From positions 62,001 to 126,000 of the forward strand of contig JAJRZA010000045.1 in the NCBI GenBank assembly GCA_024275485.1: 64,000 bases of DNA. Direction: 5' to 3'. Positions within the stretch are counted from its first letter, which is position 1, and every line of letters starts with the position of its first letter. A model generated the notes under the pieces. The model worked only from the letters and a program-made list of their open reading frames with translations. It was not told where the DNA came from and did no database searches. The stretch comes from Candidatus Krumholzibacteriota bacterium. GTDB taxonomy: Bacteria > Krumholzibacteriota > Krumholzibacteriia > LZORAL124-64-63. This document shows positions 17,634 to 31,710 of the stretch, piece by piece. The position numbers and the translations under genes were made by a program.

Positions 17634-20225
17634 ATGAAAAAACCGGGAAAGCTTGGAACAAAACACTCCCCGGTCCGGCAACCCGTGTTGTTGGGCCTTT
17701 TTGCTGGCACCGCCGTGGGTGCCGGGTACCTTCTCGCAGGTATTCCCAATGTGGAGTTGATGTCCCTGGTCATCGCTCTTTCGGGTGCGGTGCTTGGCCC
17801 GGTGGCCGGGCCACTTTGTGGGGTGTTGTCCGGGACAATTTATTCTCTTGGGAATCCCTATGGTCCACCGCCACCAGTTTTACTGGCGGCCCAGATGCTG
17901 GGGCACGGTCTGACGGGATTTTTGGGTTGGTTTTTTGGCAGACAAATTCTGCAAGCCGGGAAGAAAGCTGGATTTATCAGGATTTCACTGCTGGCGGCCA
18001 CCTCAGGTTTCGCGGGAACATTTTTCTACCAGGTCTTCACCAATCTGGCAATTGTCCTGATGGCCCCGGACGCGGATCCCAGGATAATCCTGGCAGGCAT
18101 GATCTACTTTGCCCTTGTTCACATTGGAGTCAATACGATCCTTTTCTTTCTCTTTTTCCCACATCTGGTGCGTCGGTTGGCGCAGGCGGGACAGTCGCCT
18201 CTGGTGGGGCGAAGCATCGGTGTTCTTTTTTTTGGTCTGTTGGTTTCCGGAATATTTACCTTTGACGAGGCTCGGGCCCAACAAGCCTTGCCTGACTCCA
18301 TGGTGATGGCTCCAGGTGATACACTTTCCCATGCGGAGGTCGATTCCCTCACTTTGCCCGACGCTGTTTCCCTCCCCGTACCTGGTCCCCATGGCTGGAA
18401 ACGTCCTCTCTGGAATCCTTTTTCCGCAACCACCATTCAATGGCTGAACAACCGAACCAACTGGGTGCCGGTGACCGACGGAGGTCTCGGCGGGATGACA
18501 GTGATTTTGGGAGAGGCCAATACCTCGGTCTCACCTATGTTCTTGAGGGACGGAATCCCCCAAGGAACAGGTCACCGCCTGGCCGATGATCCCTGGCTGG
18601 TCTCCAATCAGGCCGTGGTGCTCGTTCAGCAAAAAACTGGACGGGACTGGTCTGGTGGAACCGACGGCGTTGTGAATATGGCCACCGATGAAAAGGACCT
18701 TGCCAAGGCTGTTTCCTTCTATCGTGGAATCAAGGGGCCCCACGAAACCTACATGCGCGGCATCAGCCTGATGACCCCGAAAACCGCCTGGCGATTGGGT
18801 TTTGAATTCGATGAAAACATTGATCGCGACGGCTACAATTATTCGGACCAACCTGATGAGGACTTTAATCTCAACAATGAATTCCGCGGCCACTCCAGCA
18901 TTCGCCGCAGCCGGACCCGGCTGATCCGCCACCTGGATGATGACAACAGTTTGACTCTGGAGTACTCCACCGCACGCAAAACCAAGGATGATTTGCCGAC
19001 CATCGGAGCCGAACACCAGGAGATCTGGTCCGATGGCGCTTCAGCCACCGTACGCAGCCGCACGGGCGACTGGGCTCTCCGTACGGCAATATTCTGGAAC
19101 AGCCGCACTGTGGAGTGGGGGGATCGACCTGTCGGGACGGTGCCTGGGATCAACCTGCGTAAACTTGAAGCCGGTCGGGAAGGGGTGGTGCTGGATCTTA
19201 TTCATTCGCCCAGGGATACCAGTGATCTGATCTCCCCGTTCCAACCCGATGCCGGCCTGCGACAAGAAAGTCTGAATGGTCCCGCAAGCGGATTGCGACT
19301 CATGGTGAACCATTGGGACATTCACGATGATGGTGTTGATTGGGACCTTTTGCCAGCATCGGCCAGCAGTGCAGATGGAACTGAAGCACGGTTGGCGGCC
19401 CGCACCGGCCTGGCCCTTGGATCATCCCGACTGAATTTTGGTCTCTTTGGCGACTATCAGGATTATGCAGGCTTGTGGCCCGGTGGATTTGTCGCCTTTC
19501 AGCAGGCCCAAATCAATCCCTGGTGGAAAATGGTGGTTGAAGCCGGGGGACGTGCCCCGCGCAGTGACGAATTGTTGACACCTTTGCTGCATGTTGTCGA
19601 CACCCAGGAACTTTATCTGCTGCCCAATGTCGACCTGACCCACGAGAAAACCTTGCGCGCCAACCTCTTGTTCAATACTAGTGTCTTGGGCTTCGATCTT
19701 GCCCTGGATTTGAGCGCCCGGCAACTGCGCGATGGCATCACCTGGATAGCCGACCCAGCTGAAGCCTTCGTCGGCCACTGGCGCAACCAATTGGATATGG
19801 ACAGCCAGCGCCTGACAGCCTCCATCGCCCGACAGGGGCGGTTTCTCGGCTGGGGCCGAGCCAGGGTGGAGGGAACATGGCAGGAATTCGACGAAAAAAC
19901 AGCCAAGGCAGCCTTTCTGCCGCCCAACCAATATCTTCGCATGGAACTAATGTGGGAACTGCATCTGTTCAAGGAAGACGGGATCCTTCAGGCGGCCCTT
20001 CTGAGCACATACCGGGGCCCCATGGGCGATCCGTGGGATGTGACCAGGACGGTCACGCTGCCATCGGCGACCACCCACGACCTGTTGGTTGGGTTCCGGC
20101 TGGTGGGGACCCACCTCTCCCTGAATTTCCGCAATGTGACGGATCAGCGGATTCGCCTGAGCTCGGCCACGTTGAGTCCGGGTCGCGAAATCGATCTGCG
20201 GCTGAATTGGGTCTTTCTCTACTGA
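17634..20225 (+). CDS. Fusion: ECF-S-like membrane domain + TonB-receptor-like beta-barrel
   Basis: A single uninterrupted 863-codon frame. Residues 15-180 hold about five very hydrophobic helices with Gly-rich wording (IALSGAVLGPVAGPLCG, then YSLGNPYGPPPP and MLGHGLTGFLGW) like substrate-binding S components of ECF vitamin transporters. Residues 191-215 then look like a fresh signal peptide (RSIGVLFFGLLVSGIF ending in ARA before Gln). The remaining 648 residues resemble a TonB-dependent receptor: a short plug-like part (MFLRDGIP, then SGGTDGVVNMAT), long amphipathic strands, and a last segment FRNVTDQRIR ending in WVFLY. An inner-membrane and an outer-membrane protein in one chain would need cleavage at 215, or a second start (GTG 18204 sits exactly there, with weak GCGGG upstream). 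Vitamin uptake is the inferred role; the substrate is unknown. No EcfA or EcfT gene is in the window. Confidence 0.72.
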   Translation: MKKPGKLGTKHSPVRQPVLLGLFAGTAVGAGYLLAGIPNVELMSLVIALSGAVLGPVAGPLCGVLSGTIYSLGNPYGPPPPVLLAAQMLGHGLTGFLGWFFGRQILQAGKKAGFIRISLLAATSGFAGTFFYQVFTNLAIVLMAPDADPRIILAGMIYFALVHIGVNTILFFLFFPHLVRRLAQAGQSPLVGRSIGVLFFGLLVSGIFTFDEARAQQALPDSMVMAPGDTLSHAEVDSLTLPDAVSLPVPGPHGWKRPLWNPFSATTIQWLNNRTNWVPVTDGGLGGMTVILGEANTSVSPMFLRDGIPQGTGHRLADDPWLVSNQAVVLVQQKTGRDWSGGTDGVVNMATDEKDLAKAVSFYRGIKGPHETYMRGISLMTPKTAWRLGFEFDENIDRDGYNYSDQPDEDFNLNNEFRGHSSIRRSRTRLIRHLDDDNSLTLEYSTARKTKDDLPTIGAEHQEIWSDGASATVRSRTGDWALRTAIFWNSRTVEWGDRPVGTVPGINLRKLEAGREGVVLDLIHSPRDTSDLISPFQPDAGLRQESLNGPASGLRLMVNHWDIHDDGVDWDLLPASASSADGTEARLAARTGLALGSSRLNFGLFGDYQDYAGLWPGGFVAFQQAQINPWWKMVVEAGGRAPRSDELLTPLLHVVDTQELYLLPNVDLTHEKTLRANLLFNTSVLGFDLALDLSARQLRDGITWIADPAEAFVGHWRNQLDMDSQRLTASIARQGRFLGWGRARVEGTWQEFDEKTAKAAFLPPNQYLRMELMWELHLFKEDGILQAALLSTYRGPMGDPWDVTRTVTLPSATTHDLLVGFRLVGTHLSLNFRNVTDQRIRLSSATLSPGREIDLRLNWVFLY

Positions 20226-23604: not shown

Positions 23605-24816
23605 GTGAGTTCCACCATGTTTGTTTGGAAGGGAAAGACGGCCAAAGGCGAGAGCCTTTCCGGCGAGTACGAAGCTGAAGACCGCAAGGAAGTGGGAAGC
23701 TATCTGCGCCAGCGGCGCATCGTTATCACTTCCATCAAGAAAAAACCCAAGGATATCCAGATATCTTTTTTTCAGAATAAGGGTGTGGGGGTCAAGGACC
23801 TGTCGGTTTTCACCCGACAGTTCGCCACCATGGTCAACGCCGGCCTGCCGTTGGTGCAGTGCCTGGATATTCTGGGTCGACAACTGGAGAAGCCGCATTT
23901 CAAAAAAGTGGTGCAGGAGGTAATGGCCGATGTGGAGGGTGGAACGACCCTGGCCGAAGCCATGGCAAAGCATCCAAAGGTTTTCAGTGATCTGTTCGTG
24001 CACATGATCGCCGCCGGTGAAGCTGGTGGTATTCTGGATATTATCCTGAACCGTTTGGCTGTTTTCCTTGAGAAAGCCGATGCCCTGCAGCGCAAGGTCA
24101 AAGGCGCCATGACCTATCCAACCATCGTTCTGACAGTGGCCGGTGGAGCGTGCATCTTCATGCTGATGTTCGTGATTCCTGTTTTCGCCAAGATGTTCAG
24201 CGACTTTGGCGGGGAATTGCCCACTCCGACGCGAATCGTCATGAACCTCTCCGATTTCATTCGCGGCTATTGGTGGGCGCTGCTCGCCGGAGGAGCCGCC
24301 ATTTCGTTTGCCTATAAAACGTATCGGTCCACTAAAAGTGGCCGCTATATGACCGACAAGCTGGCCATGAAGATTCCCATCCTGGGAACGGTGGTGCAAA
24401 AAAGTGCTGTGGCCCGTTTCACCCGTACCCTGGGTACCTTGATTGGCTCCGGTGTTCCCATCCTGCAGGGTTTGGACATCACCAGCCGAACTGCAGGCAA
24501 TACGGTTATCCAACAGGCCATTGAAAAAACAGCCGAAGCCATCAGTCGAGGTGAAACCATCGCCGCGCCCCTGAAAGAGAGCGGTGTATTTCCACCCATG
24601 GTGACGCAAATGATCGGCATCGGAGAACAAACCGGCGCCCTTGATGAAATGTTGTCCAAAATAGCCGATTTTTATGACGACGAAGTGGATTCGGCGGTGG
24701 AAGCCATGACTGCGGCCATTGAACCTTTGATGATTGTTGTAATGGGTGGGATGGTTGGCAGTATGCTGGTTGCCATGTATCTGCCCATGTTCAAGATGTC
24801 CAGCATCGTGGGGTAA
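23605..24816 (+). CDS. pilC: Type IV pilus inner-membrane platform protein PilC
   Basis: 403 residues of the GspF/PilC family with GTG start 23605 and GGAAGG at 23591-23596. Two repeated cytoplasmic GspF domains are seen (VFTRQFATMVNAGLPLVQ near residue 70 and RFTRTLGTLIGSGVPILQ near 270), each followed by a hydrophobic segment. Three transmembrane helices lie at about 170-195, 220-240 and near the C-terminus (MIVVMGGMVGSMLVAMYL). PilC joins the PilB/PilT motors to the growing pilus. It is followed after 4 bp by the sensor kinase gene. Confidence 0.96.
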   Translation: MSSTMFVWKGKTAKGESLSGEYEAEDRKEVGSYLRQRRIVITSIKKKPKDIQISFFQNKGVGVKDLSVFTRQFATMVNAGLPLVQCLDILGRQLEKPHFKKVVQEVMADVEGGTTLAEAMAKHPKVFSDLFVHMIAAGEAGGILDIILNRLAVFLEKADALQRKVKGAMTYPTIVLTVAGGACIFMLMFVIPVFAKMFSDFGGELPTPTRIVMNLSDFIRGYWWALLAGGAAISFAYKTYRSTKSGRYMTDKLAMKIPILGTVVQKSAVARFTRTLGTLIGSGVPILQGLDITSRTAGNTVIQQAIEKTAEAISRGETIAAPLKESGVFPPMVTQMIGIGEQTGALDEMLSKIADFYDDEVDSAVEAMTAAIEPLMIVVMGGMVGSMLVAMYLPMFKMSSIVG

Positions 24817-24820
24817 GCCG

Positions 24821-26389
24821 TTGGACTTTATTTCAGTGAGAGACAAAACAAACGGCCCTGGTAGCCGGCGATTTTTCGGTCGGATAGCTTTGCTGGTTGT
24901 TTTGTCGCTGATAGCCGCAGTGGCTTACCAATTAGCACCTGAATACACTTCGGGCACTGGTATGATAGGTACTCTGGTCGTTTTGGGAACTTCCATCGGC
25001 CTGGCCTGGATGGCAGAATCGGGGCGCTGGAACAGCCGCGCTCTAATCCCCATACAAATGATTATTGATGTCTTGGCCGTGGGGCTGATTGCGTTTTTTT
25101 CCGGCCAAACCCCCGGTGTTATTGCACTTCTGCTGGTCTCTGCTGTGTTGGTTCAGGCGGTGTCGTGGAATTTTTTCCGTCGGGCCATGGTGATGCAGAA
25201 GCAGGATGCGTTGAACCACTTGCGGGTGCAGAAAGCGCGCTGGGAAGTGCGCAACATTATCGACAACATTCGCAGTGGTCTGCTGACCATTGATCGCCAG
25301 GGAGTGGTAATCCGTGTTAATCCTGCCTGCTGCCGCATTCTGGAAATGGAAGATCGGGACATGCTGGGCCGCAAGCTAATCGACATTTGCCGTGGCGGCA
25401 TGGAGCAACTCACTGAAACCATCCTGCCTGTGGCCGAAGGTGCCCCGGCGGTTGACCGTGGCGAAGTGCAGCTCAAGCGCATGGGGCGGGAAATGCCCAT
25501 TGGCCTGAACGTCAATCATCTCACTACCCCCAACGGAAAAATCATTGGTGCCATTTCCCTTTTCACTGATCTCACGCGGGAAAAGGAAATGGGGGAGCGA
25601 GTTCGGCAGAGTGATCGGCTGGCGGCCATTGGTGAACTGGCAGCCAGCATTGCCCACGAAATCCGCAATCCTCTGGCCAGCATCCGTGGCAGCGTGGAAA
25701 TGCTTTCCGATGATTTGGAACTGGAAGGAGACCAGGCGGAATTGATGGCCCTGGTGCTGAAGGAAAGCGCCCGTGTCAACACCATCATCAACGATTTTCT
25801 TGCCTATTCACGAATGCGAGCAACAACCAGACGCCGTTTCAAGGGACAGGAATTCCGGGATGAAATTTCCCTTCAGATTCGACAACACATCACGGCCAAA
25901 GGTGGCCAAGTTGGACTCCATTGCGATATTCAGCCCGAAGACATGGATGTGGTGGCTGACCCCGGACAATTGACCCAGATGGTCTTGAATCTTGTGATCA
26001 ATGCCTGTGAAGCCATGAACTACAAGGGTGAATTGCGGCTCCGATTGAGGTTGCTGGCGGCTGGCACCAGCCAGGAGTTGGTGGTAACCGACAACGGTCC
26101 CGGCTTGGATGACGACATCCGCCACGAACTGTTCACCCCGTTTGTCACCAACAAGGAAAAAGGGACCGGTTTGGGGTTGAGCATTGTGCAACGCATTGCC
26201 AACGCCCATGGTGGCGATGTGCGCGTCCAAGATGCCCCGGGTGGTGGAACCACCTTCAGGGTTCGTTGGCCTGTGGTCCATGTACCGGAATTGGCGAGGG
26301 AGCCTGCGAGCGGGAATTCCCAGGATCAAGAATCTGTAACGGCAGTCGAATCGCCAGGTCGAGTTTCTGAAGAATTGATGCCTGCTTGA
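24821..26389 (+). CDS. pilS: Sensor histidine kinase PilS
   Basis: The ORF is open upstream inside pilC. TTG 24821, 4 bp after the pilC stop with GGGGTAA in front, is the best start (GTG 24836 is an alternative). Four transmembrane helices cover about residues 20-130, then a PAS domain (IIDNIRSGLLTIDRQG), HisKA with the phospho-acceptor in SIAHEIRNPLASIRG, and a HATPase domain (NLVINACEAM, DNGPGLDDD, GTGLGLSIV). Followed by a sigma-54 response regulator and surrounded by pil genes, it is the PilS of this system: in known systems it senses pilin in the membrane and sets pilin transcription through PilR. Confidence 0.9.
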   Translation: MDFISVRDKTNGPGSRRFFGRIALLVVLSLIAAVAYQLAPEYTSGTGMIGTLVVLGTSIGLAWMAESGRWNSRALIPIQMIIDVLAVGLIAFFSGQTPGVIALLLVSAVLVQAVSWNFFRRAMVMQKQDALNHLRVQKARWEVRNIIDNIRSGLLTIDRQGVVIRVNPACCRILEMEDRDMLGRKLIDICRGGMEQLTETILPVAEGAPAVDRGEVQLKRMGREMPIGLNVNHLTTPNGKIIGAISLFTDLTREKEMGERVRQSDRLAAIGELAASIAHEIRNPLASIRGSVEMLSDDLELEGDQAELMALVLKESARVNTIINDFLAYSRMRATTRRRFKGQEFRDEISLQIRQHITAKGGQVGLHCDIQPEDMDVVADPGQLTQMVLNLVINACEAMNYKGELRLRLRLLAAGTSQELVVTDNGPGLDDDIRHELFTPFVTNKEKGTGLGLSIVQRIANAHGGDVRVQDAPGGGTTFRVRWPVVHVPELAREPASGNSQDQESVTAVESPGRVSEELMPA

Positions 26390-28232: not shown

Positions 28233-28248
28233 TGGCACAACCATTGCA
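28233..28248 (+). promoter_or_regulatory. Sigma-54 promoter of pilA
   Basis: TGGCAC (28233-28238), five bases, TTGCA (28244-28248): a perfect match to the -24/-12 consensus TGGCACN5TTGCA. Transcription would start near 28259, giving a leader of about 93 nt before the GTG of pilA. PilR, encoded just upstream, is a sigma-54 activator. Confidence 0.88.
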
Positions 28249-28351: not shown

Positions 28352-28762
28352 GTGTTTAATCGTAAGGGATTTACTCTGATTGAGCTGATGATCGTAGTCG
28401 TAATCATCGGTATCTTGGCTGCGATTGCCATCCCCAATTTTATCAGCATGCAGGATCGGGCCAAAGAGGCCAAAGTTAAGGGTGCTGCCCACACCGTGCA
28501 ACTGGCTGCCGAAGATTGGGCTGTCCGCAACGACGGCATCTACTCGGATGCTGCTGGTGATCTGACTGCTCTTCTGCCTGGTGGCGCTCTTCTTGAGAAC
28601 GCTTTTACCGGTGCTGGCACCGAACCTCAATTTGCCGGTGCTGCCACTACTTCCGGTCAAGTTGGTATCGTTGCCGTGGTCCAGGGCGGCGTCAACGTTG
28701 GATACTCCATCAACGGTTGGGGCAAGACCGCTGAGGTTGTAACATTGACCAGCGGCCAGTAG
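28352..28762 (+). CDS. pilA: Major type IV pilin PilA
   Basis: 136 residues, GTG start with AAGGAGG seven bases upstream. The class III leader is very short: MFNRKG is cut before FTLIELMIVVVIIG, with the essential Glu5. The N-terminal helix ends in AIPNFISMQDRAKEAK. The globular part is small and has no C-terminal disulfide, like the pilins of delta-proteobacteria and the GspG group. It sits behind a perfect sigma-54 promoter and in front of a strong terminator, which suggests a very abundant, mostly monocistronic message. It is closely similar to the second pilin at 29351 (same YSINGWGK segment, both end SSGQ/TSGQ). Confidence 0.93.
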   Translation: MFNRKGFTLIELMIVVVIIGILAAIAIPNFISMQDRAKEAKVKGAAHTVQLAAEDWAVRNDGIYSDAAGDLTALLPGGALLENAFTGAGTEPQFAGAATTSGQVGIVAVVQGGVNVGYSINGWGKTAEVVTLTSGQ

Positions 28763-28786
28763 AATTTTCCTGAATCTGGGAATGCA

Positions 28787-28816
28787 AGCGGGGCCGGTTT
28801 TCCGGTCCCGCTTTTT
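28787..28816 (+). terminator. Intrinsic terminator after pilA
   Basis: An 11-bp stem, AGCGGGGCCGG (28787-28797) with CCGGTCCCGCT (28802-28812), a four-T loop and a run of five T (28812-28816). One G-T wobble. It stands between pilA and the pilin-like gene at 28832. Confidence 0.9.
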
Positions 28817-28831
28817 CAACAAGGTAAGCAC

Positions 28832-29260
28832 GTGAAACTCAAACTGGAGATACCCAAAAACTACCCTGATCTGGTCTTGGCCATTGGATCCGCCAGCATG
28901 ATCGTGGTTTGTTTGTTTTTGCTGGGGATTCCCGCCTTCAACTATCTGCAGGGGCGTGCCTTCGAGGCAGCCATCAGGGGAAACGCCGCAACTCTACAAT
29001 TGGCGGCGGAAACCTATGCTTCAGCTAATTTGGGCCTATATCCCGAAGACCCACGGGATTTGATCAAATATTTGCCAAACAATGAACCACCGCTTAATCC
29101 TTTCACTGGAGAAGCCGCGATTTTTCGGGGCCTTCCAGGTGATTTGACTTATCGTTCGCCCACCAATGGCCAGGACTATGTCATTGAAGCATGGGGCCAG
29201 AACAAGGGCGACCAACCCAAGCTATTGTTACTCTTGAAGGGCCACATACCGCGCCGCTAA
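28832..29260 (+). CDS. Pilin-like protein without prepilin cleavage signal
   Basis: 142 residues, GTG start 28832 with AAGGTAAG at 28821-28828. It aligns along its length with PilA: a hydrophobic N-terminal helix (MIVVCLFLLGIPAFNYL), then the pilin-specific RGNAATLQLAAETYA segment (PilA has AHTVQLAAEDWA), LYPEDPRDL in place of the YSDA...L stretch, an NPFTG motif (PilA: NAFTG) and a final EAWGQN (PilA: NGWGK). The Gly-Phe-Thr-Leu-Ile-Glu processing site is absent: the N-terminus is MKLKLEIPKNYPD. It therefore cannot be processed by PilD in the usual way and probably stays in the inner membrane. It could be a pilin regulator, a PilS ligand or an assembly cap. All roles are inference. Confidence 0.8.
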   Translation: MKLKLEIPKNYPDLVLAIGSASMIVVCLFLLGIPAFNYLQGRAFEAAIRGNAATLQLAAETYASANLGLYPEDPRDLIKYLPNNEPPLNPFTGEAAIFRGLPGDLTYRSPTNGQDYVIEAWGQNKGDQPKLLLLLKGHIPRR

Positions 29261-29350: not shown

Positions 29351-29761
29351 TTGCTGGGGAAACATGGATTCACCCTGATTGAGTTAATGATTGTCGTGGT
29401 CATCATCGGCATACTGGCTGCTGTGGCCATTCCCAACTACATGAGCATGCAGGACCGGGCCAAGGAGAGCAGGGTAACCGCAAATGCCCATACGGTGCAA
29501 TTGGCTACTGAAGACTTTGCGGTGCGCCACGATGGTGTATATTCCGATGCTCAGGCGGATATTTTGCCGTTGCTGCCCGGTTCCAACCGACTTGCCAATG
29601 CCTTCACCGGAGCCATGACCGAACCCCAGTTTGGCAATGCTGCTGCTTCGTTGGGCCAAGTGGGGATCGTGGGCATCCAACAGGGCGGCGTGACCACCGG
29701 ATACAGCATCAATGGCTGGGGAAAAAACGGGGAGATTCTGGTCTATTCCAGTGGGCAGTGA
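29351..29761 (+). CDS. Second type IV pilin (PilA paralogue)
   Basis: 136 residues, TTG start 29351 with GGAGG at 29340-29344. The leader MLGKHG is cut before FTLIELMIVVVIIG. Length and wording follow PilA closely, with VAIPNYMSMQDRAKESR and a YSINGWGKNG end, so this is a recent paralogue or an alternative pilin. No sigma-54 site precedes it: the 90-bp AT-rich gap (29261-29350) contains no clear promoter, so it may depend on read-through or a weak promoter. A hairpin follows the stop. Confidence 0.9.
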   Translation: MLGKHGFTLIELMIVVVIIGILAAVAIPNYMSMQDRAKESRVTANAHTVQLATEDFAVRHDGVYSDAQADILPLLPGSNRLANAFTGAMTEPQFGNAAASLGQVGIVGIQQGGVTTGYSINGWGKNGEILVYSSGQ

Positions 29762-29784: not shown

Positions 29785-29815
29785 CCACCGGGAGACACAT
29801 TCCGGTGGGCTTTCT
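29785..29815 (+). terminator. Intrinsic terminator after second pilin
   Basis: CCACCGG (29785-29791) pairs perfectly with CCGGTGG (29802-29808) across a 10-base loop and is followed by the T-rich GCTTTCTTT. A plausible rho-independent terminator for the pilin gene. Confidence 0.7.
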
Positions 29816-29923
29816 TTGTCCACAAGTTTGGAGAATCTGGCATCAGCTTTGCAGTTAAACTTTCATAGTGTCATAACTCCCTTGATATCCAGGCTGAGAT
29901 CCATAAGCGGTCGGAGGTGGACG

Positions 29924-30940
29924 TTGAGTTTCCAGAAAGTGGTAACAAATAAGGCAGATGTTGGGCAACTCATACCCGTTTCTGTTGAAAAATTGGAATT
30001 GCCCGATTTCCCTGTTGCCGTTTCCACAACTAAAGCGCCCGGGACGCAATCGGGCCAGTTGGAAGCTCTGCGGGTCCTGGACCTCAACAAGAATTTCCGG
30101 TCCGGATTCCTACGCCGTTCCATCCGGGGTATCAGTGGTGTTTCCTTCACCGTTGCCCGGGGTGAAGTTTTTGCGCTGCTAGGGCACAATGGTGCCGGCA
30201 AGACAACCACCATCAACTGCATCCTGGATTTGGTTCATGCCGACTGTGGGGAGGTTCGGCTATTCGACTGCCCCAACACCGACATCCACTCCCGGGCCAG
30301 GGTTGGATACCTGCCTGAACGGCCATATTTCTTTGAACACTTGAGTGGCCGGGAATTACTGGTTTTTTACGGCAAACTCCTGAATATTCAATCAGCCCAA
30401 ATTGAAGCGCAAGTGACTTCGATACTGGCCAAAACAAAAATGACGGCTGTCGCGGATCGTCCCTTGCGAAAATACAGCAAAGGCATGCTTCAGCGAATTG
30501 GCTTGGCCCAAACCCTCTTGGGTGATCCCGACCTGTTGATTCTGGACGAACCAATGAGCGGATTGGACCCCGTGGGGCGTCGAGAAGTTCGGCAACTGTT
30601 GCAGGGCTTGAAGGCCGAAGGTAAAACAATAATCCTCTCTTCGCACATTGTTCCCGATGTGGAGATGCTTGCTGATAGGGTGGGAATCATGTGTGGTGGA
30701 CAGTTGGTCGAAGTGTGTGCCATGGCCAGTTTGGCCAGCCAAAGCAGTTACGATATTCGGATCGTCGACGACTCCTCGACCCTGGGACATCGAACTGTAA
30801 GGGTTGGCGACGTGAAAATGCTGGTAAGGAAACTTGAACAATTGACTCAATCGGGGCAAGAGGTCCTGGTTGTTGAAACCCGGCACTCGGGTCTTGAAGA
30901 CCTTTTCATGAAAGTCCACGACCAAAGGAACTCAAAGTGA
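29924..30940 (+). CDS. ABC transporter ATPase of the pil cluster (PilH-like)
   Basis: The frame is open from 29816, but TTG 29924 has a strong GGAGGTGG (29913-29920) at the right distance and gives 338 residues. The first 60 or so residues are a variable extension, then an ABC domain of the ABC-2 exporter type: Walker A GHNGAGKTTT, Q-loop region, signature YSKGMLQRIGLAQ, Walker B LLILDEPMSGLDP and HIV switch His. In Myxococcus the same place in the pil cluster holds the ABC genes pilH and pilI, needed for pilus assembly. By position this is the PilH counterpart. The exported substrate is unknown. Confidence 0.85.
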   Translation: MSFQKVVTNKADVGQLIPVSVEKLELPDFPVAVSTTKAPGTQSGQLEALRVLDLNKNFRSGFLRRSIRGISGVSFTVARGEVFALLGHNGAGKTTTINCILDLVHADCGEVRLFDCPNTDIHSRARVGYLPERPYFFEHLSGRELLVFYGKLLNIQSAQIEAQVTSILAKTKMTAVADRPLRKYSKGMLQRIGLAQTLLGDPDLLILDEPMSGLDPVGRREVRQLLQGLKAEGKTIILSSHIVPDVEMLADRVGIMCGGQLVEVCAMASLASQSSYDIRIVDDSSTLGHRTVRVGDVKMLVRKLEQLTQSGQEVLVVETRHSGLEDLFMKVHDQRNSK

Positions 30941-31710
30941 TGCTTTCAAACATCAATGCCCTGGCCATGAATACTTTTCGCGAAACCGTTCGCGACCGGA
31001 TTTTTTATCTGGTGGGGGCTTTCGGTTTTGTCATGCTGGTTTCCACCGCCGTGGTCTCGCCTTTGACCATTGGTGCCCAGGGAAAAATCATGTCCGACGT
31101 GGGGCTGGCTGCCATGAGTGTCTTTGGTCTGCTGGTGGTTGTTTTTGTGGGCAGTAATATGGTTCACAAGGAGATGGACAAAGGCACCATCCTGACAATT
31201 TTAGCCAAGCCTGTCAGTCGCCGGCAATACCTGTGGGGGAAATTCCTGGGCTTGAGCCTGACCCAAATCTGCATGGTTGCCATCATGGGTGCGCTGTTTT
31301 TGGTGATGACCTTGATTGCACCGGGCGACTTCACCTTCCGCTACCTGCCGGCCATCTATTTGATTTTTCTGGAAATGATGCTGATTACGGCCGTGGTTGT
31401 TCTGTTCTCGACCAGTGTATCTCCGGTCTTGGCAGCCGTTTTCAGCCTGGGTGTGTTTGTCATGGGGCATCTGAGTGAAAGCATTCATGACTTCGGTGTC
31501 ATGCAGGATTCGGTTTTTCAGGCCAGAGTCGCCCAGGTGGTGTATTACCTGATTCCAAATCTGGAAGTCTTCAACGTGCGTGGAGCAGTGGTGCACGGAG
31601 CGACGGTGGGGGTTGATCATATTCTGATGGCCACTCTTTACGGAGTGTCATATTCTTGCCTGCTCTTGATTCTTGCCGGATCCATTTTTGCCAGGAGGGA
31701 GTTGCGCTGA
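30940..31710 (+). CDS. ABC-2 type permease of the pil cluster (PilI-like)
   Basis: The start ATG 30940 overlaps the stop of the ATPase gene (a GTG at 30937 is also possible). 256 residues with about six transmembrane helices and the ABC-2/NosY-like opening NTFRETVRDRIFYLVGAF, then GSNMVHKEMDKGTILTILAKP(V)SR-type wording that marks permeases of this class. It pairs with the ATPase before it. Position in the cluster matches Myxococcus PilI, a membrane protein required for pili. The next gene overlaps its last base (TGATG). Confidence 0.85.
   Translation: MLSNINALAMNTFRETVRDRIFYLVGAFGFVMLVSTAVVSPLTIGAQGKIMSDVGLAAMSVFGLLVVVFVGSNMVHKEMDKGTILTILAKPVSRRQYLWGKFLGLSLTQICMVAIMGALFLVMTLIAPGDFTFRYLPAIYLIFLEMMLITAVVVLFSTSVSPVLAAVFSLGVFVMGHLSESIHDFGVMQDSVFQARVAQVVYYLIPNLEVFNVRGAVVHGATVGVDHILMATLYGVSYSCLLLILAGSIFARRELR

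What the first reader, a model, noticed from the sequence alone, without database searches (positions are those of the whole stretch)
28832..29260. A full-length pilin relative that has lost the prepilin signal, between two normal pilins
It follows PilA through the AHTVQLAAE-like helix, the NPFTG loop and the terminal WGQN but has no GFTLIE processing site; its N-terminus is that of an ordinary membrane anchor. It cannot enter a fibre in the normal way. Sitting behind the pilA terminator, it would be made in small amounts. A permanently membrane-bound pilin mimic could be a ligand for PilS or a brake or cap on assembly.
Basis: partly seen in the sequence, partly recalled or inferred. Interest (0 to 1): 0.62.

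Follow-up and report, generated by a model that had tools for sequence, protein, structure and literature searches.

The report
Pilin turned permanent membrane protein
Between two ordinary pilus subunit genes, this bacterium and its relatives keep a third that has the pilin shape but has lost the cut-and-assemble signal, so it probably stays in the inner membrane and helps or controls pilus building instead of becoming part of the fibre.

Summary
Window 28832-29260 encodes a 142-aa homologue of the neighbouring PilA (35% over 99 aa). It has the pilin fold but no prepilin site. The window is a Candidatus Krumholzibacteriota MAG. The gene is not a local accident: 20 of 80 held genomes of the phylum carry it, all in one family, and 0 of 42 outside that family do. 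In all 20 it lies just downstream of pilA, and it is under purifying selection.

In 20 of 20 copies residue -1 is never Gly, residue +5 is never Glu, residue +1 is acidic (19 Asp, 1 Glu) and the pilin Pro22 is kept. The N-terminal tail is basic in 18 of 18 copies measured. A strong hairpin separates pilA from it in 18 of 18. A sigma54 promoter precedes pilA in 19 of 20, with none between pilA and this gene.

Best reading: a pilin converted into a low-dose, unprocessed, permanently membrane-bound pilin accessory protein, most likely an assembly adaptor or chaperone. This matches the gene layout and proposed role of Pseudomonas TfpY, but the protein has one transmembrane helix and descends from a pilin. 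Function is inferred, not shown.

The parts
28233..28247 (+). sigma54-type -24/-12 promoter TGGCAC-N5-TTGC upstream of pilA1
   Evidence: Pattern scan; present upstream of pilA1 in 19 of 20 carriers. Fits PilR (sigma54 activator) encoded just upstream (established knowledge).
28352..28762 (+). PilA1, normal type IV pilin with GFTLIE
   Evidence: ORF; N_methyl 3.7e-10; AF2 pLDDT 86.0
28786..28813 (+). 12-bp G+C-rich hairpin plus T-run after pilA1 (attenuator/terminator-like)
   Evidence: Fold z = -4.25, 1 of 200 shuffles as good; hairpin in the pilA1-ORF gap in 18 of 18 loci folded. The consensus scan does not list it.
28821..28824 (+). Shine-Dalgarno AAGG, 7 nt before the GTG
   Evidence: Read in sequence
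28832..29260 (+). Leaderless pilin, 142 aa
   Evidence: AF2 pLDDT 87.5; 20 orthologues
28832..28867 (+). Cytoplasmic tail, residues 1-12, basic (3 K/R, 1 D/E); 12 to 77 aa in orthologues, K+R exceeding D+E in 18 of 18
28868..28870 (+). Asp13, at pilin position +1 (normally Phe1)
   Evidence: 19 Asp and 1 Glu of 20; register set by Pro22 and by structure alignment, model residue 13 = chain residue 1
28880..28882 (+). Ala17, at pilin position +5 (normally Glu5)
   Evidence: No Glu in 20 of 20
28868..28933 (+). Transmembrane part of helix alpha1, residues 13-34, ending at the conserved Pro34 (pilin Pro22)
   Evidence: Hydropathy 2.6; helix 11-65; Pro22 20 of 20
29351..29761 (+). PilA2, second pilin with GFTLIE, also behind the hairpin
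   Evidence: N_methyl 1.2e-8
29785..29808 (+). Terminator-like hairpin after PilA2
   Evidence: 2 sites found in the region, 2.5 expected from shuffles, so weak alone
29838..29852 (+). sigma54-type site ahead of the ABC transporter genes
24746..26389 (+). PilS sensor kinase (possible partner under a rival reading)
   Evidence: HisKA/HATPase_c/PAS; 4 predicted TM segments

Best explanation
A duplicated pilin became a permanent inner-membrane protein. It keeps the long alpha1 helix and beta head, so it can still dock with PilA. It has lost Gly-1 and Glu5 and keeps a basic cytoplasmic tail, so PilD cannot cut it and it cannot be drawn into a growing fibre (inferred from pilin biology). It is made from the pilA transcript by leakage past a hairpin, so its dose is a small, fixed fraction of PilA and rises with PilSR/sigma54 output (arrangement shown, dose inferred). 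The most likely job is that of a pilin accessory protein working like TfpY: an adaptor or chaperone that holds PilA, and perhaps the co-transcribed PilA2, at the assembly platform to start a fibre (inferred). Shown: homology, predicted fold, loss of the site, conservation, synteny, hairpin. Not shown: expression, topology, partners, effect on piliation.
For: Pilin homology and fold (PilA1 control). Leader absent in 20 of 20, with a new conserved acidic +1 residue and invariant Leu and Gly at +4 and +7 (18 of 18). Purifying selection like that on PilA1 (dN/dS 0.06-0.32 in 7 of 8 pairs, 1 pair saturated). One origin: 18 copies form one side of a 100/100 branch against 60 pilins. Never found without pilA: 20 of 29 family genomes with PilA, 0 of 9 without. 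Hairpin in 18 of 18 gaps; no sigma54 site between pilA1 and it. TfpY precedent: encoded after pilA behind a terminator that sets its dose, low abundance, absent from sheared pili, needed for optimal assembly, two-hybrid signal with PilA, FimU and PilE (PMC11841053, abstract, sections 6 and 11 and passages read).
Against: Nine of 29 pilA-bearing relatives in the family manage without it, so it is not a general need. TfpY has three transmembrane helices and is not described as a pilin, so the analogy is by layout, dose and non-assembly only. The hairpin also follows pilA1 in relatives that lack the gene, so it may be just the old pilA terminator. Distance covariation did not single out PilA1 or PilA2 as partner (partial rho 0.10 and -0.28). 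No expression data.
Confidence: 0.5

Rival explanations
1. PilS ligand: the protein sits in the membrane beside PilS and mimics unassembled pilin, setting the baseline of PilSR signalling for pilA. Being uncleaved and unassembled, it would report transcription rather than pilin stock.
For: pilS-pilR lie directly upstream in the same cluster; PilS reads pilin in the membrane in P. aeruginosa (PMC6058289 passage; PMC11841053 section 6); the protein keeps a pilin-like transmembrane helix.
Against: No distance covariation with PilS (partial rho -0.04; -0.41 for its first 230 aa, 9 taxa). In the window's own genus PilS has only 3-4 predicted TM segments against 4-7 in the other carriers, by crude hydropathy, while this protein is conserved in both.
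Confidence: 0.2
2. Brake or cap: it docks on pilin pools or on the platform as a dead-end subunit that cannot be extracted, limiting the number or length of fibres.
For: Lost processing site, lost Glu5, basic tail retained, pilin docking surfaces kept. That unprocessed pilins do not assemble is general knowledge (recalled).
Against: A mere brake might be expected to be lost more readily, yet it is under strong purifying selection. The nearest layout analogue promotes assembly.
Confidence: 0.17
3. A minor pilin that is still cut at a non-canonical site and assembled.
For: The review read says many prepilin peptidases are promiscuous, and Gly-1 and Glu5 exceptions exist in archaea.
Against: Residue -1 is Pro 15, Ser 2, Asp 2, Ala 1 of 20, and +1 is acidic. 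Tails reach 77 aa, whereas the review gives 6-26 aa for leaders ending in Gly in bacteria.
Confidence: 0.06
4. A decaying pilin duplicate with no function, or an assembly artefact.
For: Divergent N-terminus, no Pfam match.
Against: 20 genomes from 7 genera, same place, intact, dN/dS 0.06-0.32.
Confidence: 0.02
5. The GFTLIE signal is supplied by read-through of PilA1's stop codon, giving a PilA1-ORF fusion.
For: In the window the two genes share a frame with only one TAG between them.
Against: In frame in 5 of 18 orthologues, near the one third expected by chance (gaps); the gene has its own Shine-Dalgarno.
Confidence: 0.01

Closest known systems
TfpY/TfpX/TfpZ/FimB type IV pilin accessory proteins (PMC11841053)
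   Same: Gene directly downstream of the major pilin gene behind a terminator element; dose tied to pilA and PilSR; small inner-membrane protein expected to stay out of the fibre (for TfpY: absent from sheared pili, helps assembly).
   Different: [quoted passage not shown] this protein has one transmembrane helix and a pilin fold and descends from a pilin. Found here in one family of Krumholzibacteriota.
Type IV major and minor pilins (PilA; GspG-like pseudopilins)
   Same: Long alpha1 helix with Pro22, alpha-beta loop, beta sheet; sequence homology to PilA1 and PilA2.
   Different: No class III signal, no Gly-1, no Glu5; acidic residue at +1; variable basic proline-rich tail up to 77 aa.
Geobacter PilA-N/PilA-C (Spc) pair (recalled; only search listings seen)
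   Same: A pilin-derived protein, outside the normal prepilin pathway, encoded beside the fibre subunit.
   Different: PilA-C is a split-off globular part, whereas here both neighbours are complete pilins and the third protein keeps its own transmembrane helix.
Myxococcus-type pil cluster with PilGHI ABC transporter (PMC6060248 passages)
   Same: pilBTCSR-pilA-ABC transporter-pilD-pilMNOPQ order in the window; the Myxococcus gene order itself is recalled.
   Different: No leaderless pilin is mentioned in the passages read.

Membership tests
Type IV pilin (assembled subunit) | Class III signal peptide ending in Gly-1, prepilin peptidase site | tested here: not met
   0 of 20 copies have Gly-1 or GFxxxE; no N_methyl match
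Type IV pilin (assembled subunit) | Glu5 in the hydrophobic stretch | tested here: not met
   Ala 15, Thr 3, Gly 1, Val 1 of 20
Type IV pilin (assembled subunit) | Pilin fold: about 50-residue alpha1 plus antiparallel beta sheet | tested here: met
   AF2 pLDDT 87.5, helix 11-65, three strands; the top 11 rows of VIA-align 2 are all pilins or pseudopilins, Z 5.1-6.9, e.g. 1ay2_A Z 6.1, rmsd 3.9, 105 aligned. The true pilin PilA1 scores at most 6.5. Foldseek alone gave no hit at E <= 0.001.
Type IV pilin (assembled subunit) | Sequence homology to pilins | tested here: met
   35% over 99 aa to PilA1; E 1.6e-9 in the genome
Type IV pilin (assembled subunit) | Presence in the fibre | not testable with these tools
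   Needs sheared-pilus analysis
TfpY-like pilin accessory proteins | Three N-terminal transmembrane helices and a periplasmic domain with mixed beta sheet | tested here: not met
   One hydrophobic segment; one long helix then beta sheet
TfpY-like pilin accessory proteins | Gene after pilA behind a terminator element | tested here: met
   20 of 20 just downstream of pilA1, hairpin 18 of 18, no sigma54 site between. Co-expression itself not measured.
TfpY-like pilin accessory proteins | Interacts with PilA and minor pilins; promotes assembly; not in fibre | not testable with these tools
   Needs two-hybrid and piliation assays
PilS ligand | Direct intramembrane contact with PilS that changes pilA transcription | tested here: inconclusive
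   Only distance covariation was tried; none seen

The most novel reading that the evidence does not exclude
A new way of making an assembly factor: a pilin turned into a non-extractable template. With Glu5 gone and a conserved Asp/Glu one helical turn nearer the cytoplasm at position +1, it could offer a Glu5-like carboxylate to the N-terminal amine of incoming mature PilA while its own uncut basic tail keeps it in the membrane. It would then seed fibres, or reload the platform, without being consumed, at a dose set by leakage past the pilA hairpin.
Probability: 0.2. Interest if true: 0.75.

Novelty: new variant of a known kind. Interest (0 to 1): 0.56.

Why it matters
It shows a pilin that selection has kept across seven genera of one family while removing exactly the features needed to become a fibre. 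Such a protein is a natural separation-of-function pilin: it would allow a test of what a pilin does in the membrane (priming, platform contact, sensing by PilS) apart from what it does in the fibre. The same gene layout as TfpY, reached by a different protein, suggests that a low-dose membrane partner encoded behind the pilA terminator is a recurring need.

Tried and rejected
Stop read-through from PilA1 (frame lost in 13 of 18; gaps). Pseudogene (selection). Non-canonical PilD site. A helical stripe of conserved transmembrane residues: the pre-set 95-110 degree test was not significant (1719 of 5000 shuffles as high); the peak at 120 degrees, i.e. spacing of three, was seen only afterwards and is not claimed. 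Distance covariation as a partner finder: highest for PilN, PilR and PilD (partial rho 0.70, 0.50, 0.49), none for PilA1, PilA2 or PilS, 8-11 taxa per test; I treat it as noise-prone and inconclusive. Foldseek alone found no PDB match at E <= 0.001. The terminator scan did not list the pilA1 hairpin, in my reading because the stem runs into the T-run; folding with shuffles was used instead. The NCBIfam match of this protein to a PTS IIC model (E 0.0037, 16 bits against a cut-off of 921) is taken as a chance match of a hydrophobic helix. Papers: searches listed no paper describing a pilin relative that lacks the leader (listings seen only; of their results I read passages of PMC4471445 alone); the held library is open-access only. 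The PilS-PilA interaction paper is not held and is known to me by citation.

Tree: rows were 18 carriers plus 60 pilins; the two carriers G058 and G060 were found too late for the ORF rows and are not in the tree, the 18-row alignment or the hairpin count, but are in the 20-copy residue count. The tree uses residues from Pro22 on, 114 columns, so most inner forks are unresolved and it does not say which pilin the gene came from. Searches of 'class' and 'phylum' returned the same 80 genomes.

Full report
Identity and observation. The window lies in a 3.98-Mb genome (G000, contig C28) whose relatives are mostly labelled Candidatus Krumholzibacteriia. Its pil cluster runs pilB, pilT, pilC, pilS, pilR, pilA1, the ORF, pilA2, an ABC ATPase and permease, a further ORF, pilD, pilMNOPQ (pil names other than the pilins, PilS and the ABC pair are my reading of the translations). 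The ORF at 28832-29260 is 142 aa from GTG with AAGG 7 nt upstream. It aligns to PilA1 at 35 of 99 identities (E 3e-14); a genome-wide search returns only itself, PilA1 and PilA2. PilA1 and PilA2 hit N_methyl; the ORF does not. No upstream frame supplies a leader: the frame closes at PilA1's TAG, 23 codons upstream, and the shared frame is not conserved (gaps divisible by three in 5 of 18 orthologues).

It is a conserved family. A search of 58 relatives with the single protein, then of the family with an 18-row profile, gave 20 carriers of 38 genomes with scores of 188-233 bits, against at most 70 bits for ordinary pilins. Class and phylum searches cover the same 80 genomes: 20 of 80, all in one family, 0 of 42 outside. 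By genus, 7 of 14 in the family. PilA1 homologues (E <= 1e-20) occur in 29 of 38 and PilQ in 29 of 38. The ORF is in 20 of the 29 with PilA and 0 of the 9 without. In all 20 it lies directly after pilA1. A second pilin gene follows it in 18 of 20; in G009 and G006 the next thing is the sigma54 site of the ABC genes (G006's contig ends soon after). Relatives without the ORF keep the cluster, with one or two normal pilins at this place. One such genome, G022, has its pilA-like gene on a contig without the cluster, so its absence there may be an assembly gap; G034 has PilQ but no PilA.

What has been lost and kept. In 20 of 20 copies the residue at -1 is not Gly (Pro 15, Ser 2, Asp 2, Ala 1), +5 is not Glu (Ala 15, Thr 3, Gly 1, Val 1), +1 is acidic (Asp 19, Glu 1), and Pro22 is kept. 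Leu at +4 and Gly at +7 are invariant in the 18 copies aligned, and Ser at +10 is in 15 of 18. The register rests on Pro22 and on structure: in alignments to full-length pilins the model's residue 13 meets chain residue 1, as PilA1's residue 7, its Phe1, does. The tail before +1 is 12-77 aa with more K+R than D+E in 18 of 18, which by the positive-inside rule puts it in the cytoplasm. The review read (PMC4471445, passages) states that the bacterial class III leader invariably ends in Gly; on that basis PilD should not cut it.

Fold. AlphaFold2 with the 18-row alignment gives pLDDT 87.5: helix 11-65, short helix, three-stranded sheet. PilA1 with 19 rows gives 86.0 and the same order of elements. 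Foldseek on its own found nothing at E <= 0.001; realigning its candidates, the best 11 rows are all type IV pilins or pseudopilins, Z 5.1-6.9. Z under 8 is middling by the tool's own note, but the genuine pilin PilA1 reaches only 6.5, and the sequence homology stands independently.

Selection and origin. Pairwise dN/dS of the ORF is 0.059-0.324 in 7 of 8 pairs (one saturated), against 0.086-0.326 for PilA1 in the same 8 pairs (several dS values exceed 1 and are rough). In a tree of 18 ORFs and 60 pilins the ORFs are one side of a 100/100 branch, so one origin is the simplest reading. The tree does not resolve which pilin it came from.

Expression layout. A strong hairpin lies in the gap between pilA1 and the ORF in 18 of 18 loci; in the window it folds at z -4.25. 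In G+C-rich relatives the T-run is short, so some may act on RNA stability instead. The hairpin also follows pilA1 in relatives that lack the ORF, so the ORF probably arose behind an existing terminator. A TGGCAY-N5-TTGC sigma54 site lies 121-141 nt before the mature PilA1 codon in 19 of 20 carriers (not G005 by this pattern). None lies between pilA1 and pilA2, apart from one in G006 that is after the ORF. The ORF therefore most likely depends on leakage from the PilR/sigma54 promoter of pilA1, in low and proportional dose. This is inference; no transcripts were available, and other promoter types were only scanned by consensus.

Function. The closest published case is TfpY (PMC11841053; I read the abstract, sections 6 and 11, and passages). 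It lies downstream of pilA behind a terminator whose leakage sets its dose, is co-regulated with pilA through PilSR, is absent from sheared pili, gives two-hybrid signals with PilA, FimU and PilE, and is proposed to prime assembly. [quoted passage not shown] I therefore propose that it works like TfpY without being one, at confidence 0.5. The PilS-ligand reading (0.2) and the brake or cap reading (0.17) remain open. Distance covariation over 8-11 taxa gave no support to PilS, PilA1 or PilA2 as partner and is inconclusive.

Novelty. Six text searches in an open-access library listed no paper describing a leaderless pilin homologue of this kind. I rate it a new variant of a known kind: a pilin-derived accessory protein.

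Noticed in passing
window 17634-20225 (+): An 863-aa ORF whose first about 170 residues weakly resemble an ECF transporter substrate component (E 2.8e-4, below Pfam's cut-off) while the rest reads to me like an outer-membrane beta-barrel receptor; a fusion of an inner-membrane and an outer-membrane part would be odd. Frameshift or true fusion not tested.
   Followed up: partly
window 28233, 29838, 33367 (+): Three sigma54-type sites in the pil cluster, ahead of pilA1, of the ABC transporter pair and of pilM, recur at these places in most related clusters.
   Followed up: partly
window 29816-31710 (+): An ABC ATPase and ABC-2 permease pair sits inside the pil cluster between the pilins and pilD across the family, resembling the PilGHI ABC genes of Myxococcus clusters.
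   Followed up: partly
L080, L081, L082, L088 (orthologues of the ORF in genus g11): The cytoplasmic tail is expanded to 73-77 aa (three of the four measured) with repeated KLPxLKLPALKLPAL-type segments, unlike the 12-33 aa tails elsewhere.
   Followed up: no
L094 and L095 (G029): This genome has two pilR-pilA-pilA-ABC loci on different contigs, a duplicated cluster or a mixed bin.
   Followed up: no
window 24746-26389 (+): PilS has 3-4 predicted transmembrane segments in the window's genus but mostly 5-6 in other carrier genera of the family, by crude hydropathy.
   Followed up: partly
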